The notes below the pieces were generated by a model. It was not told where the DNA came from. It was given only the letters and a program-made list of their open reading frames with translations, and did not search any database. A DNA stretch of 44,825 nt from Cytauxzoon felis (Eukaryota > Apicomplexa > Aconoidasida > Piroplasmida > Theileriidae). Below, piece after piece: positions 113 to 44,825 of the stretch (the stretch's first letter is position 1; each line of letters opens with the position of its first letter). Where the stretch lies: NCBI GenBank assembly GCA_020283715.1, contig JAIQCW010000320.1, positions 1-44,825 on the forward strand, in the 5' to 3' direction. Made by a program: the position numbers and the translations under genes.

Positions 113-2510
113 CTACATTCTGTGATAAAGTGTGTTGAACCATCTTTTTAAAATATGTTCCATAATTGGAAAATCTGATGGATTTGTAATAACGTGTATT
201 TTACCATCTAATTCATGTAATTTTACAATTTCGCTATCCTTGAAGAATGTATCCATATATTCTCTCGGACCCTGAAGAAAAGAGGTGTGATATATCGAGT
301 GTCATCAACTAACATTTATGCTACACATTTGGTCATCTTTGGAGTGTATGAATAAAGTGGGTAAATCTTTAGGGTAGTGATTCATCTTACTCTTCAAGTC
401 TATAGTCGCATCATAGGAAATAAAAATCATTTTCAAAGGTGTTCTCTTAGAATAATATAATGGGTCCTGAAGAAGAAATATGAAGTTGAACGAATGTAAT
501 GAGTGATACAGTTGAGGTCCAGTGACTATACTTCCGCCACGATCTCTGGGAGTGGCTATACTCTTTAGAGATAGGTAATTAGAGAAGCCTCCACGGCGAG
601 TGGAATAGTCGTTCTAACCTCAGGTGATAGTTGCAACATTCTTTGGATCAACTTACATTATATCTCATGCATAAATCGAGACCGTTTTCGTATCCGCGAT
701 CTGACTCGAATATAAGTGTTCCTTTTGGGGAAATCTTTGAGTATAGCCTTACAAGGGGCACTATAATGCGGTTTATACCTTCGTAAAGATACTCGAGATT
801 GAGCATGGTACTTAAACAGATCATACTATCAACATATTTCATATTAGCCTTGGCATTCATGCTGAATAATACTTGCGATTTCATTGCAATATTACCACCT
901 AATGATATCCCGAGCATATAATATCTATTACCATCATGGCGATCATCACTGTAGACCAAATGTTCATCCCATACTTCACTAGGATCATCAAATTTACCTC
1001 TCTTGATGATACTTGTGAATTGCATGAGTTCTAATGCAAAGTCATCGAACTTATCAACGTAAGATCTCTGTTCACAAATACCACCAGATAATCCATGGGA
1101 CTGTAAATCCAGGCCATATGCTGAGTATCCTAATTTATTCATTAAATGCAGAAAACTTCCTTCATATTTAAATCTGGGGGTTACATCAAGAATATTTTTA
1201 CCGTGTAGCAGATCCTCATAGACTTCTCCATCTTTATTTAACGATTCCAAATCAGGGAATATATCCTTTGATTCTCTTTCAAATAATTCTAGAGCATCTG
1301 GATTTGGATACTCTGTAACATTTTTCGTATACCATTCAAGATTATATGAACAAAATACAGATCTAAAATGGGCACGAATGCCATGTATCATTATTATATG
1401 TCCCTTTGGATTATCTACCCTTGAGGCATACGTTCTTATCCTAATCCCCTGTTTATTAAGGAAGCTGCTCATTATAATTTTACCATCATCACCAATAGCC
1501 AATCCGTGTCTTCTTACATCAGCTTCTAGCTTACGTACTCTCTGTTCATTTACATCCACGTCAACATTCTTGACGATTCGTGGTACATTGTCATCAGATC
1601 CAGTGGTAGGCGATTTAGCATCATCCAATTGAGTATTTTCATCCACAAACTCTAGGAATTCATTGATTATTCCATCCACATCAGCCTTTTTCAATTGATC
1701 ATTAAAGTTCTCCCTTTTTATTTGACCATAATTACCCTCGGATGTCTTTCCACAAAAGATCAAATTCATACCTGCAGGACCCTTTACTGCTAATATAATC
1801 AACTTATCATCTTGTGGTAGGTAACATACTTTAAATTTATAACATCCATATTCACCCCCAGCCCTTTCCCATATTTCAACATTTCCATTTACAACTTTGG
1901 AGATGATAGTCTTTTCATCAACAGTATATGTACAAGTCCGTATATCATCTTCACTTCCATCCTCCCTTATTATTCCGGACGCAACTTCATCCTTCTTTGA
2001 CAAATCAACTTCAACCTTCTGTTTATCTACTTCTTCAATGTGTTGATTATACTCATTAAATACAGTACGCCTGTTAATTAGTTTACAAGTTTGCATCTTT
2101 TCAACAAGGAAATTGTAGAAACGATCACTTATTATCCCCCAACCATCCTCAAAATAAAAGTAGTTGTATGAAATTATACTCTTAAATAAGCCACGGGAAT
2201 GGCACAATGATACAATAACTGGTTGATCTGTAGATTTAAGACATCTAACTTCGAGGTAGTTGTTTTTTTCATTATCTCTAGGTACATAAATTACCTCATT
2301 TTCATCGACAAATTTACCAACTTTACATTTACCCTTTGGTTCAATCTTATATATTATTATGTTACCTTCCTCTTTAATACCGACTTTAACTCTATCTGTT
2401 CCCTTCCTAGTCCGCACATCTAAATCTACAGTCTTAACTTTACTTGCATCATCACCAGCCGTTGATGTGTATTTACACAATGCGATGATGATGAGTGGAA
2501 GGACGTACAT
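113..2510 (-). CDS. Secreted alpha/beta hydrolase (lysophospholipase/PST-A-like)
   Basis: Three-exon gene, exons 2510-657, 466-314 and 271-113, all joined in phase 0, giving 721 residues. The protein begins with a hydrophobic signal peptide (about residues 1-18). About 350 residues of unrecognised, charged sequence follow, and then a serine hydrolase domain. The oxyanion/HG region is visible as MIHGIRAH, the nucleophile elbow as GISLGG (Ser about 536), the acid as HSKDD (Asp about 662/663) and the base as KIHVIT (His about 695). The acid and the histidine lie only in the two small downstream exons, so the first exon alone would be catalytically incomplete. The HSKDD-then-His arrangement matches apicomplexan PST-A/monoglyceride-lipase-like proteins by family knowledge. 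Donors are GTAAGT and GTTAGT, and both acceptors are TTCAG. Intron 1 (467-656) holds a mosaic repeat. Substrate and final location are unknown; export or surface placement is inferred from the signal peptide. Confidence 0.82.
510..626. repeat. Mosaic repeat copy in hydrolase intron 1
   Basis: Module order is A (GTTGAGGTCC), C1 with its CTCTTTAGAG hairpin at 561-570, B1' and A'. It lies wholly inside the 190-nt intron. Confidence 0.85.
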
Positions 2511-3249
2511 TCTTTAAACAATGATTAAAATATTCATATGCTGTGTATATTTATGAGCATATCGTCATATTAGTGAATAAATATGTTACATGATGATTTA
2601 TTTAAGGCTGCCGCCAACAATGAGAGATAATAATACACAAAATTATAAAACAACAAACAAACACAGGTAACAATACTATACTATAATAATACCATTACAA
2701 CAACATTGAGTTTTTCAGTAAACTATCCCAGTACTCCAACGTTCATCGCTTTTTTGAAAATTCAGGGATGGGGCAAATTATCAATAATGGGGTGAGGAAC
2801 GTATTACACATTATAAGATTACAATGTATTAGCCCAGGAAACAAGAGAAAGAAATTTTCAATTTGATTCATCGATCGAAGGTCTATGTTACCCTGTTATC
2901 CACTCACCTTCAAAGGTAGGTCTAACCCTACTACCAATATATTAAGGTAATATTGTCTTCCTTCCACCGCAACACCAAAAGTCCGTTTATTTCTACAATA
3001 CCACAACCTTCTCTTCCACTCGCCGTGTAGGCTTCTTCCAATTACTTCCCCCTTCGCTTCCCTGAGATCAGCTACGGGTTTATCGCCACGATCTCCGGGA
3101 GTGGCTATACTCTTTAGAGATGAACAATTAGGAGAGGCCTCCACGGCGAGTGGAACACTGGTCTAGACCTCAGGTGGAAGGTAAGGTTGTAACTTTGCGT
3201 GGAACTATACAAAAGATGTGCATTAAATTGAAATGAGATTATATAAATT
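2511..3249. other. Intergenic region between hydrolase and adenosine kinase
   Basis: This stretch is upstream of the hydrolase start and downstream of the adenosine kinase stop. It is AT-rich without a supported ORF, apart from the mosaic repeat at about 3001-3180. A short open frame over 2896-3144 is mostly repeat sequence and is not a gene. Confidence 0.7.
3001..3180. repeat. Mosaic repeat copy, intergenic
   Basis: Module order is B1 (variant CGCCGTGTAGG), C2 in reverse, C1, B1' and A'. It is one of the few copies outside an intron and sits about 70 nt beyond the adenosine kinase stop. Confidence 0.85.
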
Positions 3250-6560: not shown

Positions 6561-6570
6561 TACAATTCAT

Positions 6571-6646
6571 CACCCGCAGCTGATCTCAGGGAAGCGGAGG
6601 GGGAAGTAAATAGAGAAGCTGTCTGCAAGACGACCTCAGGTGTAAC
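6571..6646. repeat. Mosaic repeat fragment (C2-B2'-A')
   Basis: Module order is C2 (CTGATCTCAGGGAAGCGGAG), B2' (GCTGTCTGCAAGACG) and A' (CCTCAGGTGTAAC). It abuts the 5' end of the pseudogene and may mark where its N-terminus was lost. Confidence 0.85.
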
Positions 6647-7303: not shown

Positions 7304-9349
7304 TTATAATTTCTTATTCATGTTACACTTCTTCTGACGGGGTTGTAATAAAAAACTCTCCATATATTGCCAGAATTCTTTTGCTATAGCAGCATCATTG
7401 TGTCTATGAGAACGACTTATACGTAATACCTATAAATGATATTAATTTATAATCTCATAGTCAATAAACTCACTTTAATACCCCAACTACCCATCTCTCC
7501 AGGTACAGTATCAGCATCATGAACAAATAATACACCTCTATAAAATATATTAAATAATTATATAATAAAACTTACTTCATTGTCATAAATAAATCAATAA
7601 ATGAATCAAATGGATAACCATTAAATTGCCAACGCTCACCCTTAACACTCAATATAACACAAACCACAGATATCCAATCCATATTTGTAAAACGTGATAT
7701 ATAAGAATTCTCAATCACACGAAATTTTACCGGCCTCTTTGATATATTATGAACTATCTCTATCGCATTCATCGGTAATGTCGATACTATCGAACCATCT
7801 ATATAATTAAGTTATAATTAAATAATATAATAATTACTCCACTAGAGATCTAATCCACATCACCTGAGGTTACCTCTTCCATAAGTCCAACCTCTCTTCC
7901 ACTCGCCGTGGAGGCGTCTTCTAATTACTTCCCCTTCCAGCTCCCGTAGATCGCTTCCAGGTATTCCACCTCCACCTGAGGTCCAACCACTATACTTCCG
8001 CCACGATCTCCGGGAGTGGCACTACTCTTTAGAGATAGGTAAATAGAAGAGCTGACGGCAGGACTAACCTCAGGTGGAGAGCCTCCACGGCGAGTGGAAC
8101 ACTGGTTGTAACGTCAGGTGGAGGTCTGTTCCTCCGGGTAGAATTCCTGTTCTTCGGGGTTGAACATCTTCGTTCTTACGGGTTGCCATCGCCACGATCT
8201 CTGGGAGTGGCTCTACTCTTTAGAGATAGGTAATTGGAAGAAGGCTCCACGCCTAGTGGAAGGAGAGTTGGATTAGACCTCAGGTGGATGGACCTCGAGT
8301 GGAGTGATTGTTAAATTGGTTTTGGACAAACTTTCTCTGAGTGATTTTTGTGGATCAATGAATTGATGATCTTCGAGTAATTGTTTGATATTTTGTCTTG
8401 CGATAATGGAGGTAGTACCGCTGGGTACGATTATGATTGGTTTTTTTCTATATTTGGAGCATATTTCATCTAGTACTCGTAATTTTCGTTCTATAGATTG
8501 ATTATTGTATTAATAAATAGACATACGTGTTCCTATAAAGCTACCGATAGAATTTGTTTCTCTATGTTTTGATGAAGAGGATGATGAAGAAGGTGTATTA
8601 GATTTATTTGAGGTTGCAGATTCTGCTTTTTGTAATATCCTAGAAAATCCTTCACCATGTACAGTAATTAATGAATTTCTAGTTCTAATTGGTCGTTCAT
8701 GTATATTTGTTATAAAAATTAATGAGTTTAGATAATTATGTTTAGCTTTTTTAATAATATGTTGATCATTTATTAAATTATCATTAAAATTTTTATATTT
8801 ATTATTTAAATCATTATATAAATCATCTATTAATTTTTTAAATGTAATTTTATTAGATGTTGAAGATAATTGTTTATCAATTGTTTTTCCGGGTATAATA
8901 ACTGGTTCATTTTTATTAATAGGTATATAATTAACTTTAGCTTCTAATAATTCTGTATTAACTTTTGGTTCATCTAAAATAGATTTTAAACGATCTCTTT
9001 CTAATATATTTATATATCTAAAACCACGTTTAGTTATAGAACTATATGTATAATCATCTCTTTTTATAGTTATAAATAATAATATATCACCAATTACATA
9101 TGATTCACCTCTTTTACTATATAAACCACTAGGTGATAATACATTTAATTCTAAATTATAATCTGGTAATTGAACAACTAAATATCCATCATTATTTTTA
9201 TTAAATTTTATTTTATAATGATTAAGTACTATTAATTTTAATAATGATATAGATTCTGTTGTAGGTTTATTCTCCCAAAATATATCATTCTCTTCAACAT
9301 TATCTTTTATACACCAACTCTCATCAAATATATCATCTGTACCATCCAT
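7304..9349 (-). CDS. CDC73: Paf1 complex component CDC73 (parafibromin-like)
   Basis: Five exons: 9349-8527, 8490-8332, 7798-7576, 7537-7474 and 7429-7304, giving 464 residues. The complex acts on RNA polymerase II during elongation and in histone modification (family knowledge). The C-terminal Ras-like domain is clear: VKFRVIENSYISRFTNMDWISVV..WQFNGYPFDSFIDLF..GSWGIKVLRISRSHRHND..FWQYMESF aligns with the human WQFKGWP and HKRHLDRPVFLRFWE region. Exon 2 supplies KKPIIIVPSGTTS.IARQNIKQLL, matching the human PIIIIPAATTS segment. The N-terminal part (KRGFRYINILERDRL) is more diverged. Intron 1 is 36 nt. The intron 2 donor (GTTTGT at 8331) was chosen by phase and homology and is the least certain join. 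That intron (7799-8331) carries two mosaic repeats in tandem. The upstream 157 nt is shared with the divergent Ap4A hydrolase gene. Confidence 0.88.
7838..8306. repeat. Large composite mosaic repeat in CDC73 intron 2
   Basis: Module order is A, B1, C3rc, A, C1, B3', A', B1', A', three reversed D units (8107-8175), a second C1, B1', A'. It looks like two elements fused through a D array, and fills nearly all of the 533-nt intron. Confidence 0.85.
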
Positions 9350-9506: not shown

Positions 9507-10533
9507 ATGATTAAAGCTGCTGGTATCATTATCTATAAAAATATCGCTGATTCACAAGATTTCAAATTCCTTCTACTTAAAGCATCTGATAAACCATTCC
9601 ATTGGACACCACCAAAAGGTTTATTCTTATATATACAATATTCATATAAATACAATAGGAAAATTAGATCCAGGAGAAGATAATATACAAGCTGCATATA
9701 GAGAAACACTCGAAGAATCCGGACTACATAAAGATGTCATTCAACTAGATGATAACTTCATAGAAGTATGTTTATACAACAATTTAATAAACATATATTG
9801 TTCACTCTAATCGAGGTCCAATCACTACCTTCACCTTTCCTTCGTCCTGCCGTCAGCTTCTCTATTTACCTCCCCTCGGATTACCGTAGATCATCCTCGG
9901 TATTTGTCTACCCGGAAGAACGTAAATGTTCAACCCCTGAGAACAGGAAATCTACCCGGAAGAACAAACATCTCTCCCACCTGATGTTACAACTACTGTT
10001 CCACTCGCCGTGGAGGCCTCTTCCAATTACCTATCTCTAAAGAGTAGAGCCACTCCCGGAGATCGTGGCGAATGTAGAGGATAAGACCTCAAGTGGAACC
10101 CGCAGCTGATCTATGGGAATCCGAGGGGAAGTAAATAGAGGAGCTGTCTGCAAGACGACCTCAGGTGGAACAGCGAGTGGAATACGAGGATCTAACATCA
10201 GATGTAATGTTGACTCTAGGAGATGTAATGGATGGTGGATTTATTTCTATGGCGTTTGATTGTATCTTCGTTATATTATTTTAATATAGACACTGCATTA
10301 CCAAGCTCATGGAGATGATAAGGAATGTATTTACTATCTCGGTAAACTATTGGATGATAATGCAGAGATAAAATTATCTGAAGAACATCAGAACTATGCG
10401 TAAGTCACTTGAGATTTTGTATATATTCATGTATAGATGGGTGGATATTAAAGAGATCCCTGACTACTGTACTAAGGAATCACTATGTAAAATGTTTACA
10501 AATGCACATAACTATTTAAAATGTAAAAAATAA
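9507..10533 (+). CDS. Nudix bis(5'-nucleosyl)-tetraphosphatase (Ap4A hydrolase)
   Basis: Four exons (9507-9618, 9659-9765, 10290-10399, 10437-10533) give 141 residues. The Nudix box is perfect once intron 1 (40 nt) is removed: G at residue 38, then KLDPGE, RETLEESGL to residue 60, fitting GX5EX7REUXEEXGU. WTPPKG before the box and EEHQNYAWVDIKE after it are the hallmarks of the animal/plant NUDT2 asymmetrical Ap4A hydrolases. The enzyme splits diadenosine tetraphosphate to ATP and AMP, a cytosolic housekeeping role. Intron 2 (9766-10289) is 524 nt and almost entirely mosaic repeat. The gene diverges from CDC73 and converges on LSm2, with 36 nt between the two stop codons. Length is typical for the family. 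Confidence 0.94.
9808..10208. repeat. Composite mosaic repeat in Ap4A hydrolase intron 2
   Basis: Module order is A, B3, C4, three D units (ACCC starts near 9910, 9933, 9954), A, B1, C1rc, A', C2, B2', A', then a weaker A' at the end. This is one of the longest copies. Confidence 0.85.
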
Positions 10534-11794: not shown

Positions 11795-14166
11795 ATGATG
11801 CCTAGTTTCGCAATATTTTTTAATTTAATATTGTTGTGGGCTTCGGTATCTAAAGGTGAGTTATAGAAATGTTGATAATTATCTGATGTGTATGTTGAAT
11901 TGTATATAATAATATATAGGACGTGATACATCGGGGGAAAGTTTATTGGAATCACGTGGTGTTACGGTTAATACTCCTTCTAACCATGGTACTAATCCTT
12001 ATAATACACCTAAATATGTGAGGACAAGAAGGCTTGATACTACTTCATATTTATCTAATGGTAGACTTCCTATAATGCGTTTTAATCCTACTTCATATTA
12101 TTCTAAACCATTGGACAAGACTTTTTATGTAAAAGAATTGGAGAATGTTCTAACTGAACAGACAAGGAAGGCTTTGGCTGTTTGTACTAAAGTTGCTCAT
12201 GATTTTGTTTTAATTGTAGATGAATCTGGTAGTATAACATCATTTAATTGGAAGGATAAAGTATATAAATTTGTGAAGCTTTTGGCTAATGCTATAGCTG
12301 AAGCTGATGGTAATAATCGTGTAGCGATTGTAAAGTATGCATCTAAATCTAATATTATAACAGAATTTAAGACTGTAAATAAATCTACCATATCTTCATT
12401 TAATGATGAGATTGATAGGATGTTTGAATTACCTAGGACATATGGTTTAACAAATACAGGATCGGCTCTTCAACTTGCTAGGAAGAGTATATTGGATAAG
12501 GAAGGTACATTTATTGTTGATTTAAATTCTGATAATAGAGCTGGAGATAAGAGTACTGTAACTCTTATAATAACGGATGGTGAATCTACGGATCCACAAT
12601 TAGCTTTAACTGAGAGTAATATTTATAGATTTAATGGTATACATTTATTTGTACTTGGTATCGGTAATGTATCTGAAAATGAATGTAGAAAACTTGTTGG
12701 TTGTCCTGAAGACAATCAAAATTGCCCGGGTTTAATAATGTCTGATTGGACTGGAATGACAAATTATGTTAGTGCTATATTAGAATCTTTATGTACACCA
12801 ACTGGTAATAATGCTATCTGTGAGAGTACATGGACTGACTTTGGAGTATGTAGTAAGCCTTGTGGAGGTGGTCTGAAGACTGCTACTTTGGTGAGTGTAA
12901 GGACTACTAGAGAGGCTACTATTGGTTATAATGGTGTTAGGGGTTTAACATGTGAAGAACAGTATAAGAATAATACGGTTAAAACTATGGATTGTAATAC
13001 TCATGAATGTACTGAGACTCATGAATATGAGATTAATCCACGTGTACCAACTGTTGAAGCACTTGAGGAACCCGTTTTAAAACCAGTGGAAGAGGATCAA
13101 GAAGAAGAAGAGGAAGAGGAGGAAGAGGAAGAACTAGAAGAAGAATTGGAAAGGGAACTGGAGGAAGGAGAAGAAGAGTATGAACCTGAAGTCGATCTCG
13201 GGCAGGCTGAAGGGGAAGTAAATAGAGGAGAAGAAGGAGAAGAAGGAGAAGAAGAAGAATTGGAAGACTTCTTTACTAATGAAGAGGAGGAAGAAGAATC
13301 TGTTAGATTTTCACCACTAATTCTAGAACCTGAACCAGTATTGAAGCCAAAATTACCAACTCATAGGACAAGGCATACTAGAGTTATTATAAAACCAGTA
13401 CCAGTAATTGTACAAGCTCCAACATTAGTATCAGATCCAGCACCAGGATATGAAGATGATGAAGTTGAACAACCTGAAGATGTACCTTTAGCACATGTTA
13501 AACATGAGCATCAAGATGAATCCTTCTTTAGAAAAGCCCAAAAAAATATGAAAACTATAGGTGAGTTCAATAATCAAAATATAAATTATTCAATTTAGGA
13601 GCCGCTGCTGCTGTAGTCACGTTAACCGGCTCTAGTATCGCTGCTTGTTGGTATATCTTCTTCAAAGAGTAAGTTACACAACATACAAAATTTAACCACC
13701 GAAATGTTGTATAATCCACCCCTCGTTCTCTTGCAGACAGCTCTCCACCTGAGGTCCAATCCAACTTTATTCGTCCTGCCGTCAGCTCTCCTAATTCACT
13801 CCCCGTAAACGGTAATGCCACTCCCGGAGATCGTGGCGATGTTGAAGGTGTAGATGGAATCAAGAGTAATACTAGACCTCAAGTGGAACCCGTAGCTGAT
13901 CTCAGGGAAGCGAAGGGACAACTAAATAAGAAGGCTGTCTGCAAGACGACCTCAGGTGGAATAGCGAGTGGAATGGTGGATGTCAACTCGGAAGAACGGG
14001 ATGTATGCTTTGTAACATCCTTTATAATTCATTATATAGGAAAGCATTGTCTCCATTAGTGGCAGACCCTGGTGATTTGGAATTTATGAATGCAGGTGAT
14101 GGTGACGATGTAGAGCCATCTGAGAATTTCCAAGTTTCAAATGCAGATGATGGTATATGGGCATGA
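11795..14166 (+). CDS. TRAP: Thrombospondin-related anonymous protein (TRAP), copy 1
   Basis: Four exons (11795-11855, 11920-13560, 13599-13668, 14040-14166) give 632 residues. TRAP-family adhesins are micronemal type I membrane proteins that couple host or substrate binding to the gliding motor (family knowledge). A signal peptide spans residues 1-20. A vWA domain covers about 113-310 with MIDAS residues in DESGSI, TNTGSAL and ITDGES. One TSP1 repeat covers about 318-387 (STWTDFGVCSKPCGGG). A very acidic Glu-rich stretch covers about 405-480, followed by a Pro/Val-rich stalk. The membrane segment (GAAAAVVTLTGSSIAACWYI) is encoded by its own 70-nt exon. The tail is acidic and ends DDGIWA, with the penultimate Trp expected for aldolase/actin coupling. 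Codons for about residues 442-456 are a mosaic-repeat C3 module. Intron 3 contains another copy. Confidence 0.94.
13184..13228 (+). repeat. C3 mosaic-repeat module inside the TRAP copy 1 coding sequence
   Basis: From ACCTG through GGAAGTAAATAGAG this 45-nt stretch follows the C3 module seen in introns, with an exact run of 18 nt (AAGGGGAAGTAAATAGAG) at its end and small offsetting indels earlier. It is read in frame as EVDLGQAEGEVNR within the Glu-rich linker. Confidence 0.75.
13730..14000. repeat. Mosaic repeat copy in TRAP copy 1 intron 3
   Basis: Module order is B2, A, B3, C5-type core in reverse, A', C2, B2', A', and one D-like unit. The intron spans 13669-14039. Confidence 0.85.
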
Positions 14167-14340
14167 GATTAAGCCTAAAAGTGTTGTAATATAGTATTTA
14201 AGTTTTATATCTCTATATATCTAGATAGTTGATGGGGAGTGATTCCATAATGTGTTGATTAGAAGTTGATACCGTTTTAATATTTCATCCTTCCACATTG
14301 GTGTATTTATATATTAATTTATAAAATTCATGTAATATAA

Positions 14341-15407: not shown

Positions 15408-17659
15408 ATGAATCATCTCAATATACTCTTGGCATTTATGCCCATTATTATAAACATTAATATTCTCCATATATTTGGGCTATCTCAACGTGAGTTTATT
15501 ATCTATGTATGATGCATTAAGATTATATCGTTTGGAGTGATGAAATTACTTTGAAATAATCTCTTCTCCATTTCTATTGGTAACCCCCTTGTGAATTTAT
15601 TGGAGTAACGTCTTCGTATTTCCACATGAACTTAGCATGTCCTAATTAAATTGAGGTGGATTGACATTGACTTTGTGATAAATTAGAAATTGTATGATGT
15701 AACAACATCTAATCTCTATTACTTTAGATTCGGGTCTAGAACTCTCCTCGAACAGCGCAAAGCCAAATGGATACTGTAAAATTCAGTTGGATTTGGTATT
15801 GCTGGTTGATGAATCTGCGAGTATATCTGGTAGTGAATGGAATAAGCTGATTCCATTTTTGAAAAAGTTAGTAAGGTCATTGAACATTGAGCAGAATGGT
15901 GTGCACTTATCCCTGGTTACCTATGCCACTGCGATACGTAGATTTATAGGATTTTTGGACCCAGCAGCCAAGGATGAGAAGTTAGCGCTGGAAATTATTG
16001 ATAAATTTGGTAACAGTAAACCGGCCAATGGTTGGACGTATACTGGACAGGCCTTGACATTTGTACGAGAATCGGTATTTCCAATGGGTGGTCGCAAGAA
16101 TGTGCCAAAGGCTATCATTTTAGTTACCGATGGAGCATCAACTGAAGTTGATATTACAGTACAAGTATCATCTTTACTACATGATGATGGTGTGACTATA
16201 TTAGTCGTAGGTGTTGGTAAGGCTAGAACTGCTGAATGCCGTAGTGTCGTTGGATGCCCACCTCGTGGTACATGTCCATCATTTGTAAAGACTAATTGGA
16301 ATGAAATGATTGGTATTGTTGGTGGTTTGATGGCTGAGGTTTGTGAAACTATACCAAAGGATGCTGTTTGTGATTTCCATTGGAGCATGTGGTCCAAATG
16401 TAACGTGCGTTGTGGAACCGGTACCAGAGCCAGGAAGATTATGGGAGCAACTACCATTGTTGAAGAGACGATTGGATCCAGTGGTAAACCTGGACGTACG
16501 TGCAAAGAGCAAGAAGTAGACTATCCTGAGGAAGTTGAGGGATGTACAATCGAGTGCGAAGTTGAGGATACCGGGGGTGAAGGAGGTGAGGGAGAAGAAG
16601 GAGGAGGAGGAGGAGAGAATGAAGAATGGATGATAGAACATGCTGGGGGTGATGTGATTGCCAACGATATTAGTGGCGATGAATGGAATGACAATGGTGA
16701 TGAAATTTCAGTACCAAATATATCTGAGGAAGGTGATAATCCAATCGGTGGTACAGTAGAAGATATTGATGATGAATATTCTGAAGATTACATGGATGAT
16801 GAAGTCAATAGTCATCACGACATTGTACATCATGATATCGATGCTCACTCATCGAGTACCCTAGAGCACCTTCTTCCTTCCCATCATAAGGTATCGATTC
16901 CAAATGCCAGAGAAGGTATAATGGATATGAATGCAAATGAAATGCATCTAGATGAAGAAAATAGTAGGTTGTAATAAGAAAGAGAAATCATCTTTTTAGA
17001 ATGGAAGGAGGAAAATCGTTCAGAATACAATAAAGACAGTACAGAATCACAGTCTAATGAATCCTCAGGTAATTAATCCAAAGCCATCGATGACTTTTAA
17101 ACTTGTGGATAGATCCTCTGTTCCATCTGAGGTCGTCCTACCGTTGCCACTCGGCGTGGTGGCCTCTTCTATTTACCTCCCCCTCCGCTTCCCATAGATC
17201 GTCTCGGGTTCCACTCGAGGTCCAATCTAACTCTTCATTCCATCTCACCTTCATCTCCGCCACGATCTCTGGGAGTGGCTATACTCTTTAGAGATAGATA
17301 AATAGAAGAGGCCACCACGCCGAGTGGAAGATATGGTGGTAACCTCAGGTGGAATAGACAACGACTTGCTTATAAATTTTCTTTAGATCGAGTCGAGGGT
17401 AATACAACTAAGATAGCTGGTGGCGTGATTGGTTTATTATTGGTTCTTGGTGCGGGTGGTGGTTACATGTTGTATAAGAAGTGAGTTTATTGTATGGAAC
17501 TGAATAGAAACTTCCAGGAAAAATTCCGGTGTAAATGATGCGGGTGATATTAATGGCGACTTTGCTGAGGGTGGCGTTAGACAAACTAATGAATCCGATG
17601 GTGGTGAAACGTATACAGTAGCAGATTTAGATGATGGCCTTTGGGGTGTATCAAATTAA
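15408..17659 (+). CDS. TRAP: Thrombospondin-related anonymous protein (TRAP), copy 2
   Basis: Five exons (15408-15489, 15728-16963, 17000-17068, 17387-17480, 17518-17659) give 540 residues. The signal peptide is residues 1 to about 27. A vWA domain covers about 47-235, with MIDAS residues in DESASI, TYTGQAL and VTDGAS. A TSP1 repeat covers about 240-305 with the classical WSMWSKC and RCGTGT. A Gly/Glu-rich linker and an acidic, His-containing stalk follow. The membrane segment starts IAGGVIGLLLVLGAGGG, a rhomboid-protease-type cleavage motif known in micronemal adhesins. The tail is acidic with Trp in DDGLWGVSN, near but not at the penultimate position. It is a tandem paralog of TRAP copy 1 with the same domain order but diverged sequence and a different exon layout near the membrane. 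Intron 1 (238 nt) is the only long intron here with no clear mosaic repeat; intron 3 has one. Confidence 0.94.
17117..17356. repeat. Mosaic repeat copy in TRAP copy 2 intron 3
   Basis: Module order is A, B1 (CACTCGGCGTGGTGG variant), a C2-like module in reverse, A, C1, B1' and A'. It lies in intron 17069-17386. Confidence 0.85.
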
Positions 17660-32381: not shown

Positions 32382-34134
32382 TTATAATTCATCATTAGAT
32401 AGAGTACCTTCTTCAGTCAATTCTTGTGTTAAACGTTCAGCATATGCTCTTCCGGTCATTATTGAATTTATGAAACCAGATATAGAGTCCTATTATAAAT
32501 GTTTAATGATTCATTTAGTAAAATACCTCATCAAAACTAGTTTTCATATGTAGAAATACACCCTTTGTTAAATTTAATCCCAATAAGGCTGGAAAATTCG
32601 ATAACCCAAAAACTTGTTCCCATTGTTTATGATCATTTGCTATTAAAAATATGAAATTATATACTTGAACAAACCCAAAGTATAACAAAAACTAAATGGG
32701 GAATTAGAATTACGTTCCATGGCCTTTGAAATTATAGATAAATAATTATCCTTAGATTCAGATGGTAAGAAAAACAACAAACATAAAGGCCCACCGCATT
32801 GTTTTTTAAGGTCTTGTAGGTTATTCACCATAATGGGTGGCCCCATATTCTTGTAATATTTTCTAGCAAATGCTAATATATCCTCAGCATTTCTCTGACC
32901 ATTGTAATCCATAACCTTCAACTTAGATTTGTCTCCTTGAGGGAACAACTTTATTGTAGGGTAACCCTATATATAATAAAATGTATATCATCCAAACAGA
33001 TAGACTCAACAAAATATAGTCTACCTATAGATCCCCAACCTGAGATTACGTCCACTGTTCGTCTTGCAGACAGCTCTTCTATTTACCTATCTCTAAAGAG
33101 TAATGCCACTCCCGGAGATCGTGGCGGAGAGAAGTATAGTGATAGGACCACAGGTGGAACCTGGAAGCGATCTACGGGAGCTGGAAGTGGAAGTAAATAG
33201 AATAGGCCACCACGGCGAGTGGGAAGACAAGGATAGGACCTCAGGTGGATTATATAAATGCTTGCTAATACTTCGCTTGTGTAGACGTACTTTGATATTG
33301 TAATCGCTGGCGAGTGCCGTTTCTACGGTACAATCAACCCTTCCAACTTTTACTTTTTCAGCAACATTGGCCATTCTTGTCCATTCAGGTTCTAATTGTT
33401 TGCAATGACCGCACCAAGGAGCGTAGAACATAATTAACCTGTAATGTTCTAATTTGACAACGTTCAACTAACCATTGGTTATATTTATCATCCAATACGG
33501 TATTGAAATTGGAGGATGTCAACTGAATAACCGTACCAGATGCTTGAGATCCTCCAGAACCTTTAGGTTTTGAGGCCTTTGATCGAGCTGTATAAATAGT
33601 TACAAATAACCTTTCATCAACTCACCTTCACTTTGTCCAGTCAACTTTGACACTTTATCTTTCACATACTTATTCAACTTTTTCATGGCAAATGTGACTA
33701 AGGCGTCCAATGTTCTATTCTCATTATAATCTACAACTGTAGGATCATCGTATCCTAAGGGATGAAATGATTAAAACTATAGATACTGACCATTCCCTAC
33801 GAAAATTTTGACGGTAGGAAATCCCTGCACATTATACTTCCTAGCTAAAGCCTCATCATCTACGGCTATAACTGGTATCACATCCTTCAAAACTTTGGCT
33901 ACATCCTTATAGACCTTGGAGAAGTCTTTACAATGCGCGCACCTATAGATATAAATTCAAACCACAGGCATAAATATACCAATCCGCATAGAATTCCACA
34001 ATTGATACACCATTTTTCTTGACTCTATTTAGAAACTCATCCGATTTTAACGAGAGCACATTCTGGTCCCCGTCATAGAGTGAACACTCAACAAGTTTTA
34101 GAGTAATGTACAGTAGACATGAACAAAGCTTCAT
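32382..34134 (-). CDS. Protein disulfide isomerase, P5/PDIA6-like
   Basis: Eight exons: 34134-33980, 33942-33791, 33754-33626, 33587-33473, 33438-33291, 32966-32693, 32639-32527 and 32489-32382, giving 397 residues. A signal peptide (residues 1 to about 18) is followed by thioredoxin domain a with active site WCAHC (Cys53, Cys56). Thioredoxin domain a' has APWCGHC (Cys193, Cys196) and the cis-Pro loop NIKGYPTIKLF. A C-terminal b-like domain ends SNDEL, a recognisable KDEL-type ER retention signal. It forms or rearranges disulfides in secreted proteins. The first CxxC is CAHC rather than the usual CGHC. Homology places every splice; the exon 6 donor GTTTTT is weak but gives the only consistent frame. 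Intron 5 (32967-33290) contains a mosaic repeat. The start lies 123 nt from the divergent 34258 gene. Confidence 0.92.
33036..33250. repeat. Mosaic repeat copy in disulfide isomerase intron 5
   Basis: Module order is A, B2, C1rc, A', C3, B1', A'. Confidence 0.85.
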
Positions 34135-34257: not shown

Positions 34258-36443
34258 ATGTATGGTAGCTCTGAATCCGAGGAAGATTATGATGATTTCG
34301 ATGATCTTCCCAAATCATTAGAGCAAAAACAATACTCATCGCATAAATCTCGTGGTTCAAAAGTTTCTTATCGCAGTATTAAAAATCAAGTTGCTTTACG
34401 GTTACTACACCTGGGTAAACGATTATTGGCTGAGAACACTACAAGTAGTCATAATGAAGCTATAGATATTGCTACGGTATTTCTAAAGAGTATACCTCCA
34501 AGGGGTTATATACCTGAGGATCTGTTCACATTTATTGTATCGATTTTTCACATGTATGACTTAAATATATAACAATTCATAACTCAATAGGCATATTAAT
34601 GATGATGCATCGTATAAATTATTCAATAAATTCATGTATATGGCTGCTGCCACCACTCCTCATCTGGTATTTGGATTTGCACATTAATCTAAGCTTCATA
34701 ATTCAGCGTCCGTTGATTTTAGAACATACTGTTAGAGCATTGGCATTGAAGGGTAATATATCTAGTATAACTGATGAAGTTCAGAGGTATATTCAATTTA
34801 TTCTATCCAAGAATCTTTAATTTATATATATAGGCGTTGTAGTGAATGGAACTTGGAAAAGCATGAAATTGCCAAGCATATGAAATGGGTTGTTAAGCAT
34901 TTGGAGAATATAACAGATGAAGATTATATTTACAAGTCACAGGATTTTATGTATGCTTCACATTTAATAATCATAAATATTACTATAGAATTGAATTAGA
35001 AGACGTATTATGTACATATTTAAATCATAAACGTTTACCAAATCCTATTCTACTGGAATTATATATTAAAGTTTATGAAGTTAGAGCGTTGAAATTATTG
35101 AATGATTATATTAACACATTCCCAAAGATATCATTCCTACGTGTATATAGAATTGGTCTTGTTAATGTATGTTTCTGTATATTTAATTTAATATTTTTTT
35201 TTCAGAAAATATCAGATGCTATAGTGACTGAACAACTTGTAAGTTATTGGAAGTTGTATTATTTTTATATTAAAATAGGAAGATGATTTAACTATAGCTG
35301 TACAACAATCTGGGTATTTTTTTTATCTATAATTTATGTAATAATTAATTTATTAGATATTCTATAGAGACATTAAATCTATTAATTACCAATAAAAATA
35401 ATATATCAAGGAAGTTTTTATTGAATTTATTATTTGAATTTATAGTTTGTTTATTATTTTTATACTTTATAAATTCTATAGATTGTAAAACCTAATGTAA
35501 TTTTATTATGGAAGACATTACTCGAACATTTATTAGACAATACTTATAATTTTAATGGTATGCTCTTAATTATATCAATAATAACCACCAGATACTATGC
35601 AAATCGTCAATGATATCCTCAAAGAATCAAAATATAATCTATACAATAACTTCAAATGTAAGTCACAACCTATATTCCACTTGTAATTCCACATGAGGTC
35701 GTCCTGCCGTCAGCTTCTCTATTTATCTCCCCTTCCAGCTCCCGTGGATCGCTTCCAGGTTCCACTTGAGGTTTAAATCTAATCTCATCGAGATACGTCT
35801 AAAGTGATGAAGTCTATGTTTATGAGGATATCTCAATGAATATAAATTGGAATGAAGCAAGGTTTCTTAAACTCAATAAAATCATCAAATTCCTTTTGAA
35901 TGAGATATTGACATTTAAATTTCATTAAATAATCATTCTTCAATCTTCATGAGTTTCCCCAGAAATTAAGGTTTTTCTTCAAATTTTCGAGGTAAAAATG
36001 AAGTAGTGGAATACAGTGATTGGACCTCAAGTGGACTACCCGTAGCTGATCTCTGGGAAGCGAAGGGGGAGGTAAATAGAAGAGGCCGCCACGGCGAGTG
36101 GAAAGGAACGACCTTAGGTGGAATGTTCATACGTTCGTTTATGTTATATTGTTTAAATTAATTTAATGGTATATTTGATTAGATCCGATTACTGGTCGTT
36201 TGGATTATGAATGTATTTATTATTATATGTTGGTTGGTTCATTTATATTAGATGAGGAAGATTATATATTATTTATTAGAGAATTGGAGAGGTTAGTTTG
36301 ATATATTATTTAAGATTGATATTAATAGTATATATGATATAAAATTAAATAATAATGAGGAGTGTACAAAAGAGATTAATATATGGGATCGATATTTATT
36401 ATTCCTTAAATATAGATTTAATAATATATCAATTATAATTTAA
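34258..36443 (+). CDS. Twelve-exon helical protein of unknown function
   Basis: Exons 34258-34553, 34591-34666, 34707-34786, 34834-34950, 34989-35166, 35206-35238, 35279-35313, 35357-35444, 35482-35557, 35592-35657, 36183-36291 and 36329-36443 give 422 residues with consistent phases. The start is acidic (SSESEEDYDDFDDL). After that the protein appears all-helical with regularly spaced Leu (NQVALRLLHLGKRLL, PLILEHTVRALALKG, NPILLELYIKVYEVRALKLL), suggesting an alpha-solenoid. A VPS35-like trafficking protein is one guess, unsupported by any motif. Eleven introns make it the densest here; ten are about 34-48 nt and intron 10 is 525 nt with mosaic repeats. The final exon acceptor was chosen among two; the other would end after about 9 more residues. 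The stop interlocks with the convergent SR gene stop. Confidence 0.65.
35684..36122. repeat. Split mosaic repeat in intron 10 of the 34258 gene
   Basis: The left part is A, B3, C3rc, A (35684-35777). The right part is A', C2, B1', A' (about 36021-36122). About 240 nt of unique AT-rich sequence lies between them, including a 40-codon open frame at 35806-35928. Confidence 0.8.
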
Positions 36444-37944
36444 TCTTCATGATTATGATTATTTTCTTCTACACTTCTAGTACGTGATCTTTCAGAATAT
36501 GATCTACTACCTCTTGATTTACTTCTACTATCATCACGATGATATGTACGTTCATTTGGTGATGGACTTCTTCTACGATCATTATGTGATCTACTTCTAC
36601 TGCGTTCATTTGGTGATGCACTTCTTCTACGTTCATTAGGTGATGGACTTCTTCTATTACGTTCACTAATTGATGGACTTCTTCTACGTTCATTATCAGA
36701 TCCACTTCTTCTACGTTCATTATCAGATCCACTTCTTCTAATACTATCACGACTTCTACGATCATCACGATGTCTACTTCTACGATGATAACCATCACGT
36801 GATCTACTACGATGATATTCATCACGACGAATCTTAAATTAATTAAATCATTATATATATATAATAAAACATACTCTAATCCTACAAGAATCATCCGGAG
36901 TTACTAATTCTGTACCATCAAGTTTACGTAAAGCATATTTCATATCTGATTTATGAATAAAATCTACATAACCACGCTATAAAAATTATATTTATATATC
37001 ATTATAATCATCAAAACTTACTCCATGATCTATATTCACATAACCAACTGGACCTGCCCTCCTCATATGATCCTTCAAATGCTGCCAACGACAACCATGA
37101 GGTAAATTACTTATTATCAAACGATAATCAGTCCTATAATTTCAATATATAATCCAATCAAATAAAATCTATATTATATCGTACATCTCTCCACCTGAGG
37201 TTACAATCCACCTTTCCTTCGTCTTGCAGACAGCTCTTCTAATTACCTCCCCGTAAACGGTATAGCCACTCCCAGAGATCGTGGCGAATGTAGTACTGGA
37301 CCTCAAGTGGAATACCTGGAAGCGATCTACGGGAGCTGGAAGGGGAAGTAAATAAGGAAGCTGTCTGCAAGACCGACCTCAGATTTAACGGGTGGTGGAA
37401 GAGGTGAAGGTAGTTGTTGGACCTCGAGCGTAGCGACGAATAGAAGGCATTATCAATTGAGTTGTTATGGTATATTGGTACAAACCTTGTTGGTGGTGGG
37501 TATCTGGATCCGCGATCGTCATGATTACTATAGGATATGTTGATATGTGTTTTTGTGTATTACCTGATGTATCGGCGTGGTTTCTTTTCTCCAGCAAATT
37601 CGACACGTAGACGATACTTATCATATTCATAACCATCACGATGTTCTACTGCATCTTCAGCGGATCTGTAAAAATATGATAGATAAAGTTATATATAATT
37701 TAGATCATACCTGACACTATGGAATTCAATAAAAGCATATGAGGTATAATTTGAAGTTTTGCCATGCTTAATATCGATATCACGAATTTCACCATACTAT
37801 TATAGAAATTTGAAGATAATATAATTATAATTAGTATACCTTATCAAATAAGTCACGGATATCACGTTCATCAACTTTCTCAGGTAAATTACCAACAAAT
37901 ACACAGGAAGGAGAACTATTACCTTTGCCACCTTTATAAACCAT
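36440..37944 (-). CDS. SR-family splicing factor (SRSF1-like), copy 2
   Basis: Seven exons: 37944-37840, 37796-37711, 37665-37564, 37527-37486, 37133-37022, 36976-36875 and 36832-36440, giving 313 residues. RRM1 has RNP2 VFVGNL and RNP1-like YAFIEF. A 14-residue hinge exon (NHDDRGSRYPPPT) stands where SRSF1 has its Gly hinge. RRM2 has LIISNLP, RWQHLKDHMRRAG and GYVDFIHKSDMKYALRKLDG. The C-terminal 130 residues are an RS domain with imperfect NERRRSPSP / DNERRRSGS repeats, encoded by the final exon. It is more like canonical SRSF1 than the copy at 29335. Intron 4 (37134-37485) carries a mosaic repeat. The stop codon overlaps that of the 34258 gene. A 141-residue open frame at 36469-36894 is an out-of-frame shadow of the RS repeats. 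Confidence 0.92.
37190..37431. repeat. Mosaic repeat copy in SR copy 2 intron 4
   Basis: Module order is A, B2, C5-type core in reverse, A', C3, B2', A', A'-like end. Confidence 0.85.
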
Positions 37945-38396: not shown

Positions 38397-38775
38397 CTCC
38401 CACCTGAGGTTACATCTACTGTCTTCTCCAGTTGTCTTCCACTCGCCGTGGAGGCCTCTTCTATATAGCTCCCCCTCCAGCTCCCGTAGATCACTTCCAG
38501 GTATTCCACATGAGGTCCGATGACTACTTTCTACACACATTACTTTGTCTTGCAGACAGCTTCTCTATTTAGTTATCCCTCCGCTTCCCTGAGATCAGCT
38601 GCGAGTACTCCACTCGAGGTTACACCACTACCTCCGCCACGATCTCCGGGAGTGGCTTTACTCTTTAGAGATATGTAATTGGAAGAAGCATCCACGGCTA
38701 GTGGAAGAGAGGTTGTAACATCAGGTGGAGAGCTGATGGCAGGACGAAAGAGTTGGTTGTAACCTCGGTGGAGTT
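38397..38775. repeat. Composite mosaic repeat, intergenic
   Basis: Module order is A, B1, C3rc, A, B2, C2rc, A, C1, B1', A', B3', A'. It is one of the most complete copies and the only large one outside a gene. Confidence 0.87.
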
Positions 38776-43000: not shown

Positions 43001-44825
43001 AGAGAAGGGTCATCGTGTATTAATATTTAGTCAAATGGTTAGGATGTTAAATATAATAAGTGAATATTTAACATTAAGAGGTTTTAAACATCAACGTTTA
43101 GATGGTACAATGGGTAAAGAGGTTAGAAAAAAAGCAATGGATCATTTTAATGATCCAAATTCTGATGATTTTTGTTTCCTCTTATCAACAAAAGCTGGTG
43201 GTTTAGGTATAAATTTAACAACAGCTGATACAGTTATAATATATGATAGTGATTGGAATCCACAAAATGATTTACAAGCTGAAGCACGTGCACATAGGAT
43301 TGGACAAACAAAAACAGTACAAATATATAGATTAGTTACAAAAGATTCAATAGAACAAACAATATTAGAACGTGCTAAAACAAAAATGGTATTAGATACA
43401 CTTGTTGTACAGGGGTTAAATAAAAAATCTGATGCTGTTGTATTTCAAGATGATAATAATAATAATAACAAAAGTGGATTTTCAAGAGAAGAATTAGCAA
43501 AAATATTAAAATTTGGTGCTAGTAAATTATGGAATACAGCAAATCCAAATACAGATGATAATTTTGATAGATTAGATATAGATTTAGATAAAGTATTAGA
43601 AGAAGCTGAAATAACAAATAATAATGATAGTGATTTAGCAGCTGATTTATTAAGTTCATATACAAATATAACAGAATTTAGATATGAACCACCAGAAGGA
43701 CAAATAGAATTAACAATGGAAAATGATAAAGAATTTTGGGAAGCAACAATACCATTAGAAGAACGTGTTAAATTAAAAAAGAAAAAAGAAGAAGAATTAT
43801 TAGTATTAGGACCTAGAAGAACAAGAGCAAAAGATGTTAGTGGTACAATGGAAACTGATGATTTTACTGATGATGAAGGTGATTTAGATTTTCAACCTAG
43901 AAGACGTGGTAAATTATTAACATTAGATGATCAAGATATAGAAAATAATTTAAAAAAACGTGGTCCAAAAAGATCTAAAAAAGTTATACTTACTATTAAA
44001 GATAAAATAAAAATACATCGTTCATTATCAAAATTTGGTGTACCAGAATTAAGATTAAAAGATATACATAATGATTCTAAATTACATAAAGTTGATGCTA
44101 GAGTTGTATTAAATGAATGTCAAAATCTTATTGATATGTGTAAAGCTAAATTACAACAAGATGATATACATGATGATAATCTATCTATTATAGATGATGA
44201 TGAATCTAGTACATCTGGTATTAAAAAAAGACCTAGAAGATCAACTAAAACTATTGAAATTGGTGATGTTAAAATATCACCAATAGATTTCTTAGAAAAA
44301 ATGAAATTATTAGAATCATTAGAATATTGGGGTAGAAATCAAGCTGGACCTAATTGGGCCAAATTAGATTCTAATGAATTATCTGTACCACAAATCATCA
44401 TCGATCATATGTCAGAAGGTAAAGAACAATGGAATAATAATGATTGTGTCAATCTACTCAAATTAATACATTTACATGGTTATGGTTATTGGACACTCAT
44501 GTGCGCTGATAAACAATTATGCACAGGGATACTCAAAGATCTTAAACATGATCGAGCCAAATCCAGATGTATACGATTACTCAAATTACTCACCGAATGG
44601 AAAGATGGAGAACTCAAACCTAAACCACCCAAATCATCCAGAAAACGTAATGAACATATCGATAACTATGATATATCCAATCCATCCGAGGTCCAATCCA
44701 ACTCTGTTCCACTAGACGTCCCACCTGATGTTACAACCTCGCGTTCTCCTGCCGTCAGCTCTTCTAATTTGTTATCCCCAAGGGGTAAAGCCACTCCCGG
44801 AGATCGTGGCGAAGGAGAGGGTAGA
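40023..44825 (+). CDS. CHD1: CHD1-type chromodomain helicase/ATPase (partial at window end)
   Basis: One uninterrupted frame from ATG 40023; the first exon probably ends at 44646 with donor GTAATG (phase 1), about 1541 codons. It is an ATP-dependent nucleosome spacing enzyme of the nucleus. Residues 40-300 are low complexity, rich in Met, Gln, Asn and Pro, followed by a basic/acidic stretch. Chromodomain 1 is about 480-536 (YLIKWQGFAHIHNTWD); chromodomain 2 is about 568-620 (IYLVKWRSCPYDQCTEE). The SNF2 ATPase has DEMGLGKT (688-695), DEAH (802-805) and LLSGTPLHNN. The helicase C lobe has VLIFSQMVRML, LLSTKAGGLGINL, NPQNDLQAEARAHRIGQ. A SANT/SLIDE-like region follows (HLHGYGYWTLMCADKQL, about 1480-1500). 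The frame stays open into a mosaic repeat at 44686, but that extension is probably intronic. Lack of introns over 4.6 kb contrasts with its neighbours. Confidence 0.93.
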   Translation, partial: MNTNNINQSVDINNGANDAINTDVIKSEDNNESHGNEQGDQSNNPPTQTGNNIPQQPMYYQNPMMYAYMYPQGQMMGNQMMMNNPQMMRMPNGMRPGGMYYYPMPVYNPMGGQAATPGNTQPMHSNMPPQQVQNSQMQQNPQLQNPQMQQQQMVGMNQGHVPQSMMVSKFMPQYNAYLDRMHGQTPTAGPSTNGGAVTAPPQDAVNGTPEVKEEGEKEVKEELTNGNAQRQFPFPKGQRMPMPFGMPMPGYGVNMGMNPMMFYGQPRLMVGNAIEGIPALRLASSQFQNVTQMLDALATQPKRRRKPQRSRDDSKSEDPDFKNVLQEYFSADGKDESDDEFLLGRGVKFAESGSVRRSGRTRAKSMKYDDYADSDADIIEEPTVKVSTAPRRKRGPATTPYKRQPKPVGNPYAKHNFVTYESSSEHSNQEFDVGYVEGGSLSLRNRKHRVNYAEMEDQDWSEEEMDDEEGDYQVQKEPTGGIDRIINHRVNEDGETEYLIKWQGFAHIHNTWDVYENLKEYNGIRRLDNYIKKLKHSEERQKYMSLDEIEQENIAIGLQRQIDEDSLQAERLVSHYIEESTGKTIYLVKWRSCPYDQCTEEEEDVLREHGFDNLIKLYHDREDRICGEGARNIPWNTHSISLTKFEPYLETPSFLCTNETRSLRDYQLTGLNWMVNRMKRGLSVLLADEMGLGKTVQTISLVGHFMYKEYLIGPYLVIVPQSTIDNWMREFEMWLPQANTVCYYGNATAREIIRHRELTKVYVPGKGERYKCDVCITTPSIINAPIDLEFLRRISWQLMVVDEAHQLKNKNSKRFVELMQFMADYKLLLSGTPLHNNLEELWTLLHFINPQIYTYYEDFRRRYNDVENPSAIGENKQKQLLSLQQELHEFVLRRVKKDVEKSLPNKVERILRVELSPMQIEWYKNILARNYEELAKNSGGSRSSLQNICMELKKVCNHPFLCYEPEDRQQWLQGLVYGSGKICLLEKLLLRLKEKGHRVLIFSQMVRMLNIISEYLTLRGFKHQRLDGTMGKEVRKKAMDHFNDPNSDDFCFLLSTKAGGLGINLTTADTVIIYDSDWNPQNDLQAEARAHRIGQTKTVQIYRLVTKDSIEQTILERAKTKMVLDTLVVQGLNKKSDAVVFQDDNNNNNKSGFSREELAKILKFGASKLWNTANPNTDDNFDRLDIDLDKVLEEAEITNNNDSDLAADLLSSYTNITEFRYEPPEGQIELTMENDKEFWEATIPLEERVKLKKKKEEELLVLGPRRTRAKDVSGTMETDDFTDDEGDLDFQPRRRGKLLTLDDQDIENNLKKRGPKRSKKVILTIKDKIKIHRSLSKFGVPELRLKDIHNDSKLHKVDARVVLNECQNLIDMCKAKLQQDDIHDDNLSIIDDDESSTSGIKKRPRRSTKTIEIGDVKISPIDFLEKMKLLESLEYWGRNQAGPNWAKLDSNELSVPQIIIDHMSEGKEQWNNNDCVNLLKLIHLHGYGYWTLMCADKQLCTGILKDLKHDRAKSRCIRLLKLLTEWKDGELKPKPPKSSRKRNEHIDNYDISNPSEVQSNSVPLDVPPDVTTSRSPAVSSSNLLSPRGKATPGDRGEGEGR
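44686..44825. repeat. Mosaic repeat copy at the window end, probably in CHD1 intron 1
   Basis: Module order is A, A-like (CCACCTGATGTTACAACC), B3, then C1rc with hairpin CCCCAAGGGG (44776-44785); it runs off the window. Confidence 0.82.

What the first reader, a model, noticed from the sequence alone, without database searches (positions are those of the whole stretch)
510..44825. A combinatorial mosaic repeat family built from interchangeable modules
About 20 GC-richer copies in 45 kb share a grammar. The ends are inverted A modules (CCACCTGAGGTTACAACC type). Inside, one of three B modules is joined to one of at least four C modules through a common junction (TCTATTTACCTCCCC or TCTAATTACCT), and sometimes to D units. 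Different copies combine the same modules in different orders, orientations and pairings, for example B2-C1rc, B3-C3rc, B1-C2. That is cassette swapping, not simple divergence from one master element. No transposase-like protein is encoded in the window. The inverted ends suggest MITE-like elements, but recombining modules of this kind are not a family I know in piroplasms.
Basis: partly seen in the sequence, partly recalled or inferred. Interest (0 to 1): 0.88.

Follow-up and report, generated by a model that had tools for sequence, protein, structure and literature searches.

The report
Self-shuffling hairpin repeats in a piroplasm
The genome of this piroplasm (a relative of the parasites Babesia and Theileria) is peppered with thousands of short GC-rich hairpin repeats whose parts have been swapped between copies while the copies stayed where they were.

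Summary
The window holds 24 clusters (10.3% of its bases, GC 0.48-0.59 against 0.34); the core loop GATCTNNGGGA occurs 7,145 times in the 8.6-Mb genome, reversed control 14. Modules B and C are joined at random (n=191, p=0.81) and left and right B are independent (20 of 69 equal, 20.0 expected). Other joints are fixed: J goes with C, units face outward (70 of 94 neighbour pairs, 2 inward), C4 pairs with a non-C4 unit (55 of 70). The decisive test was one intron shared by 17 related genes: 16 carry an element, with 14 to 16 different module strings depending on how A is counted, and 7 keep exactly the same right-hand junction. So modules are replaced in place. Pairs sharing at least 60 identical bases are enriched among neighbours (5 of 9 within 10 kb, 4.9% expected). 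C, D and most B modules are hairpins with covarying stems. Best explanation: ectopic short-tract conversion or template switching anchored in A and J. Nearest known kind: yeast mitochondrial GC clusters; here in nuclear introns and spacers. Three transposase/recombinase profiles gave no match.

The parts
467..656 (-). intron of a FAINT/hydrolase gene holding element A-B1-J-D-C4-A (module hits 538-627)
   Evidence: GT..AG with flanking exons conserved in paralogs; modules
3016..3177 (.). B1> J> C1> C4< D< B1< A<
6579..6643 (+). single unit C1< J< B2< A<
7860..8302 (.). A> B1> J> C2> A> C4< D< J< B3< A< B1< A< C4< D< J< B1< A< A<
9845..10168 (.). B3> J> C5> A> B1> J> D> C4> A< chimeric C (GCT/ATC)< J< B2< A< A<
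13728..13959 (.). B2> A> B3> D> C4> A< C1< J< B2< A<, inside inferred intron 13669-14039 near the first VWA/TSP1 gene
   Evidence: intron read by eye, GT..AG ends checked
17123..17352 (.). A> B1> J> chimeric C (GAC/AGC)> A> C4< D< J< B1< A<, inside inferred intron 17069-17386 near the second VWA/TSP1 gene
   Evidence: intron read by eye, GT..AG ends checked
18162..18445 (.). A> B3> A> B1> J> D> C4> A< C1< J< B1< A< B1< J<
18809..18900 (+). C4< D< J< B1< A<
19511..19725 (.). B2> A> B1> J> C2> A> C4< D< J< B2< A<
20870..21141 (.). A> A> B1> J> D> C4> A< C1< J< B3< A<; contains the query (20895-21110) of the first genome search
24229..24466 (.). A> A> J< B2> J> D> C4> A< C1< J< B2< A<
25519..25870 (.). 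two clusters: A> B2> J> C5> (25519-25591) and A< C1< J< B1< A< B3< A< (25734-25870)
26520..26766 (.). A> B3> J> C2> A> A> C4< D< B1< A<
27124..27597 (.). two clusters: B2> J> C1> (27124-27177) and C1< J< B1< A< B3< A< C2< J< B1< A< (27407-27597)
28299..28530 (.). A> A> B2> J> C2> A> J> C4< J< B3< A<
33061..33248 (.). B2> J> D> C4> A< C2< J< B1< A<
35689..36121 (.). long composite of two clusters: A> B3> J> C2> A> (35689-35772), core X (~280 bp, AT-rich), A< C1< J< B1< A< (36024-36121)
   Evidence: 13 copies aligned
37191..37373 (.). A> B2> J> D> C4> A< C2< J< B2<
38400..38744 (.). A> B1> J> C2u> A> B2> J> C1> A> C4< D< J< B1< A< B3<
44682..44808 (.). A> A> A> B3> D> C4>, near the window end

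Best explanation
This is a very abundant family of short, apparently non-coding, GC-rich repeats in the nuclear genome of a piroplasm. In the sense orientation each unit reads C hairpin, (D hairpin), J, B hairpin, A. Two units usually face outward around a core: C4 with a non-C4 unit and a short spacer, or two non-C4 units around a ~280-bp core X. The insertion site is inherited with the gene, but the interior is repeatedly replaced in place by short-tract copying between dispersed copies. I infer gene conversion or microhomology template switching, with the conserved modules A and J (and the C loop) as joints. B, lying between A and J, is therefore exchanged freely while C and J stay linked. 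Hairpin pairing is kept mainly because whole hairpins are exchanged; the covarying stems suggest that the fold, as RNA or single-stranded DNA, matters for spread or exchange. Shown: abundance, grammar, random B-C joining, differing interiors at a shared junction, neighbour bias of long identical tracts, covarying stems. Inferred: conversion or template switching, A and J as anchors, and the role of the fold.
For: Genome count 7,145 against 14 control. C class against B class n=191, p=0.81, V=0.13; C against J p=0.0002, V=0.42; J against B p=0.30. Left B equals right B in 20 of 69, random 20.0. 17 family members: 16 of 17 introns carry an element with 14 to 16 different strings; C163, C164 and C166a all differ though their exons beside the intron agree at 272 of 290 and 259 of 290 bases with C163. 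The junction TGTATCACTCATT is exact in 7 of 16, near-exact in 1, alignable by eye in 4 more and not seen in 4. C166a and C11, whose exons beside the intron agree at only 173 of 290 bases, share a B2-J-D-C4-spacer tract with 87 of 88 bases identical (my count on the alignment). L017: two elements 1.1 kb apart share 156 identical bases with unrelated left flanks; the tract starts at A and ends inside the C1 loop. Region pairs sharing at least 60 bp: 5 of 9 within 10 kb against 265 of 5,460 of all pairs, p=2.8e-5. C stem: 182, 185 and 184 of 192 Watson-Crick at the three positions, shuffled means 98, 71, 68. Chimeric stem GCT/GCT: 25 in the genome, about 400 expected if arms joined freely at the frequencies; 21 of the 25 carry AC or AT in the loop, as C2 mostly does, so the joint lies mostly in GATCT.
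Against: No reads were available, so assembly chimeras between repeats cannot be excluded; most shared exact tracts listed are under 50 bp. The neighbour bias appears only from 50 bp upwards (none at 30-45 bp; 2 of 5 pairs, p=0.02, at 70 bp) and rests on few pairs. Only one gene family gave the in-place test; one attempt with a second family gave no usable flanks. Four of the 16 introns lack the shared right-hand junction, so a single ancestral insertion is not shown for all. A is only about 12 bp, short for classical homologous recombination. G-U against A-C counts in the stems (29 against 21) do not show that the fold acts as RNA. Class B3 (41 of 207 classified B modules) lacks the B stem of the other classes, so that stem cannot be essential.
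Confidence: 0.6

Rival explanations
1. Nested transposition: units insert preferentially into existing units at A, and deletions between A copies remove old modules. Shuffling is then the result of repeated insertion and excision, by an unknown transposase or an RNA intermediate.
For: A flanks non-C4 units as direct repeats; strings such as A-B-A-B-J-C occur; C164 has an extra C5-J-B1 unit that C163 lacks.
Against: Phage_integrase, DDE_3 and Y1_Tnp gave no match, and the only RVT_1 gene found reads as a TERT (TERT named from recalled motifs); other enzyme families were not searched. Insertion alone does not replace B while A and J-D-C4 on both sides stay.
Confidence: 0.2
2. Site-specific cassette recombination at the quasi-palindromic A site (ACCTNAGGT) by an unrecognised recombinase, integron-like. 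The near-symmetry of A would allow both orientations.
For: A is a near-constant connector, and outer A is ACCTCAGGT in 77 of 142; cassettes occur in both orientations.
Against: No Phage_integrase match. The inner A is usually not palindromic (ACCTCAAGT 54, ACCTCGAGT 20 of 102). Many joints lie at J|B, not at A.
Confidence: 0.1
3. Assembly artefact: true elements are more uniform, and the assembler joined short repeats wrongly.
For: 181 contigs, no reads to check; modules are repeated thousands of times.
Against: Elements differ in spacers as well as modules. The hairpin arms tested are rarely mis-joined although the loop is shared by thousands of copies. The outward grammar and C4/non-C4 rule hold. 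Random misjoining would break these.
Confidence: 0.07

Closest known systems
Yeast mitochondrial GC clusters (e.g. GC42; PMC4478555, abstract, introduction and section list seen)
   Same: Short GC-rich palindromic elements in an AT-rich genome, dispersed; [quoted passage not shown]
   Different: Organellar there; here nuclear, thousands of copies, an ordered multi-hairpin grammar, and different interiors at one intron site in 16 paralogs.
Bacterial REP/BIME mosaic elements (PMC3733652, passages seen)
   Same: Small palindromes combined in pairs and clusters.
   Different: REPs carry GTAG or CGTC at one end, and GTAG REPs are tied to RAYT transposases; no Y1_Tnp match in this genome and a different domain of life.
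Sponge mitochondrial hairpin elements (PMC2800124, abstract seen) and Volvox organelle palindromes (PMC2670323, listing with start of abstract)
   Same: Repetitive hairpin-forming or palindromic elements in non-coding DNA.
   Different: Organellar; no comparable two-unit core with free end modules appears in what I saw.
Foldback/Galileo elements (PMC2775673, passages; PMC4079207, listing)
   Same: Inverted-repeat elements that become chimeric by ectopic recombination.
   Different: Galileo is placed in the P superfamily (a cited title) and has target-site duplications; here the profiles tested gave no transposase and no duplication was shown.
Amoebophrya introners (PMC7789003, passages seen)
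   Same: Alveolate; intronic elements with inverted repeats and hairpins.
   Different: Introner repeats lie at the intron ends; here the element lies inside an ordinary GT-AG intron, about 30-40 nt from both splice sites in C163.

Membership tests
MITE (non-autonomous DNA transposon) | terminal inverted repeats | tested here: inconclusive
   Outward units in 70 of 94 neighbour pairs, but left and right B agree only as often as chance; A occurs inside too.
MITE (non-autonomous DNA transposon) | target-site duplication | tested here: inconclusive
   Shared junctions seen, but the only empty paralogous intron (C88, 41 bp) could not be matched to the site by eye.
MITE (non-autonomous DNA transposon) | related transposase in the genome | tested here: inconclusive
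   DDE_3, Phage_integrase and Y1_Tnp: no match; other superfamilies not searched.
MITE (non-autonomous DNA transposon) | copies derive from one contiguous consensus | tested here: not met
   B-C linkage equilibrium; reassorted paralogous introns. A core is contiguous.
GC-cluster type mobile hairpins | GC-rich palindromes in AT-rich DNA, merging and shuffling | tested here: met
   Clusters GC 0.48-0.59 in 0.34; stems pair; shuffling.
GC-cluster type mobile hairpins | organellar location | tested here: not met
   Elements lie in a GT-AG intron of a 17-member gene family spread over many contigs.
REP/BIME | RAYT (Y1) transposase | tested here: not met
   PF01797: 0 matches, control rings in 5 of 14 genomes.
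Introner | element repeats lie at the splice sites | tested here: not met
   In C163 the GT lies 31 nt before the first A and the AG about 41 nt after the last A.
SINE | mobilised by a LINE-type reverse transcriptase | tested here: inconclusive
   The only RVT_1 gene found reads as TERT; Pol III boxes and tails not tested.
Known structured RNA | match to an Rfam family | tested here: not met
   No gathering-level match in the window; in 18100-21200, searched up to E=5, only one sub-threshold miRNA match, outside the clusters.

The most novel reading that the evidence does not exclude
A dedicated, continuing shuffling system in a eukaryotic nucleus. Thousands of hairpin cassettes with shared connector sites are recombined genome-wide at fixed locations, faster than the surrounding DNA mutates, by a structure-guided or site-specific enzyme not yet known. 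That would be a nuclear counterpart of integron cassettes or GC-cluster shuffling.
Probability: 0.15. Interest if true: 0.92.

Novelty: new variant of a known kind. Interest (0 to 1): 0.78.

Why it matters
A survey of 64 apicomplexan genomes reported no Class II elements, found no TEs in T. parva, T. annulata, T. orientalis and C. felis, and removed its MITE candidates as likely false positives; it also mentions one unclassified RepBase repeat from T. parva, which I could not compare (PMC9141347, passages). A family with 7,145 core loops in 8.6 Mb, about 10% of this window, changes that picture for at least one piroplasm. Because insertion sites are inherited while interiors are replaced, paralogous and orthologous introns become natural records of exchange events. 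How short dispersed hairpin repeats exchange sequence (conversion, template switching or a dedicated enzyme) becomes directly testable. The hypervariable introns might also serve as strain markers.

Tried and rejected
Structured-RNA reading: stems covary and RNAalifold finds the C hairpin, but the wobble test (G-U 29, A-C 21) does not single out RNA, so RNA against single-stranded DNA is left open. Alignments A1 and A2 were made from units already filtered for canonical C stems and well-matched B modules other than B3, and then picked by hand with rare classes favoured (47 of the 92 non-C4 and 40 of the 53 C4 units listed), so their near-complete pairing is partly by selection; the unselected figures are.

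Possible H-type pseudoknot in B1 (GCC-N-CCAC-GGC-NA-GTGG): the second stem is complete in 74 of 87, shuffled mean 44, maximum 59. It has essentially two states, so linkage can explain it; kept as a suggestion.

tRNA or known RNA family: none. Translation of an open frame across three units: no protein match at E<=1. Exact pattern scans, one of prokaryote genomes and another of viral contigs: 0 matches; no other piroplasm genome is held, so spread among relatives is untested. COX1 search to name the species: no match. A coding-potential measure meant to place all elements in introns or spacers separated coding from shuffled DNA poorly and was not used. A second gene family gave no usable paralogous flanks, and a third gene is single-copy by that search. 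Paper searches for such repeats in piroplasms (broader and mostly off topic) listed none by title and start of abstract; apart from PMC9141347 and PMC7789003 the listed papers were not opened.

Full report
What is there. The window is contig C163 of an 8.62-Mb, 181-contig genome. Its mitochondrial HSP70 matches named Babesia proteins at 80-84% and Theileria at 76-81%, and a FAINT domain occurs in the window, so this is a piroplasm without a close relative in that protein database. Twenty-four clusters with at least two B or C modules lie in the window, 4,606 bases or 10.3%, GC 0.48-0.59 against 0.34 overall. The core loop occurs 193 times in 244.8 kb (1.8 expected) and 7,145 times in the genome (reversed control 14).

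Grammar. Read in the sense orientation, a unit is C hairpin, optional D hairpin, J, B hairpin, A. C is a conserved 11-base loop GATCTNNGGGA on a short stem of eight complementary types, two seen once, the main ones CAC/GTG, GCT/AGC and AGC/GCT. On 192 exact loops, 182, 185 and 184 pairs are Watson-Crick at the three stem positions (shuffled means 98, 71, 68). On a selected alignment of 47 units, cells with changes on both sides are 73 against 28.5 shuffled, and slid structures reach at most 62% paired. D is a 3-bp hairpin with stems CTC/GAG, CCG/CGG or CCC/GGG. B has stems CCAC/GTGG, GTCT/AGAC, CCAT/ATGG and CTCT/AGAG; class B3, 41 of 207 classified B modules, does not pair this way. Of 238 units, 197 with a J-like motif were used for neighbours: 94 pairs within 400 bp face outward in 70, the same way in 22, inward in 2; C4 with non-C4 in 55 of 70 (random 33.8), C4 with C4 in none. 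A longer type carries a ~280-bp core X between two units (13 copies aligned).

Swapping. Of 238 units with at most one loop mismatch, 191 had both a named C class and a B class. C and B are independent (p=0.81), J and B also (p=0.30), while C and J are strongly linked (p=0.0002). Left and right B of a pair agree as often as chance (20 of 69, 20.0 expected). So the free joint is between J and B. Chimeric C hairpins exist but are rare: GCT/GCT 25 times in the genome, where free joining of arms at the frequencies would give about 400.

In-place replacement. A search with the FAINT/hydrolase exon at the window start found 17 genomic places including itself; the same intron was read in all 17. One (C88) has a 41-bp intron without element. 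The other 16 carry elements; intron lengths are 190-533 bp in the 14 where the script found a plausible donor (not in C152 and C160). The annotator printed 16 different strings. Counting degenerate A by eye makes C163 and C166b agree (15), and ignoring A altogether also makes C166a and C11 agree (14). The three closest genes all differ, although beside the intron C164 and C166a agree with C163 at 272 and 259 of 290 exon bases. The sequence TGTATCACTCATT right of the element is exact in seven, near-exact in one, alignable by eye in four and not seen in four (C9a, C71, C165, C152); in six of the seven it directly follows an A-like module. For at least these genes the insertion is shared and its interior has been replaced. 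C166a and C11 have only 173 of 290 exon bases in common beside the intron, yet share a B2-J-D-C4-spacer tract with 87 of 88 identical bases (my count), while C163, much closer to C166a, has a different B and spacer.

Copying seen close up. In L017 two elements 1.1 kb apart share 156 identical bases, from A to within the next C1 loop; the left flanks are unrelated, and on the right the related C1-J stretch runs on into different B modules. Among region pairs in the 21 sampled stretches, those sharing at least 60 identical bases are within 10 kb in 5 of 9 cases against 265 of 5,460 overall (p=2.8e-5); at 50, 55 and 70 bases 7 of 40, 6 of 18 and 2 of 5; at 30-45 bases there is no enrichment. Many of the 45 printed tracts end at the J|B boundary or at hairpin ends, though this is partly expected because B is the variable part.

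Mechanism. I favour short-tract ectopic conversion or template switching anchored in A and J. No match was found for Phage_integrase, DDE_3 or Y1_Tnp, and the one RVT_1 gene reads as TERT (named from recalled motifs). These are four of many possible enzyme families, searched without regard to introns. Whether the fold acts as RNA or single-stranded DNA is open.

Comparison. Yeast mitochondrial GC clusters are the nearest description: short GC-rich palindromes that merge and shuffle (PMC4478555, abstract and introduction). REP/BIMEs, sponge hairpin elements, foldback elements and Amoebophrya introners share single features. Nothing I read combines nuclear location, this density, a fixed core with freely exchanged ends, and replacement at an inherited site. 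The literature seen is limited to listings, abstracts and passages of the held open-access papers, and the one T. parva repeat mentioned for RepBase was not compared.

Limits. No reads, no transcripts, no second piroplasm genome, one informative gene family, hand-read introns, and module thresholds that miss decayed copies.

Noticed in passing
window 3250-4299 (-): Open adenosine kinase frame; the 120 listed of 527 protein matches are vertebrate (mostly fish) or unnamed proteins at 43-47% identity, with no piroplasm named among them. Possibly a host-like or laterally acquired enzyme.
   Followed up: no
window 35689-36121 and L009, L010, L011, L013, L014, L017, L019, L023, L028, L031: Core X, about 280 bp, AT-rich, lies between two outward units; composites are roughly 75-93% alike; its nature is unknown.
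   Followed up: partly
window 11913-17650 (+): Two neighbouring VWA genes with weak TSP1 matches (TRAP-like, name recalled), each with an element in an inferred intron near the 3' end.
   Followed up: partly
window 18700-18960 and several loci: A further repeated word of the type CCCGGAAGAAC / CCCTAAGAACA, often next to C5 or C4 units.
   Followed up: no
P0138 (protein hit): A protein labelled Cervus hanglu yarkandensis matches the parasite's mitochondrial HSP70 at 80%; probably piroplasm DNA in a deer assembly.
   Followed up: no
G000:C56:73693-74436: The only RVT_1 match found in the genome, a ~1010-aa open frame that reads like telomerase reverse transcriptase.
   Followed up: partly
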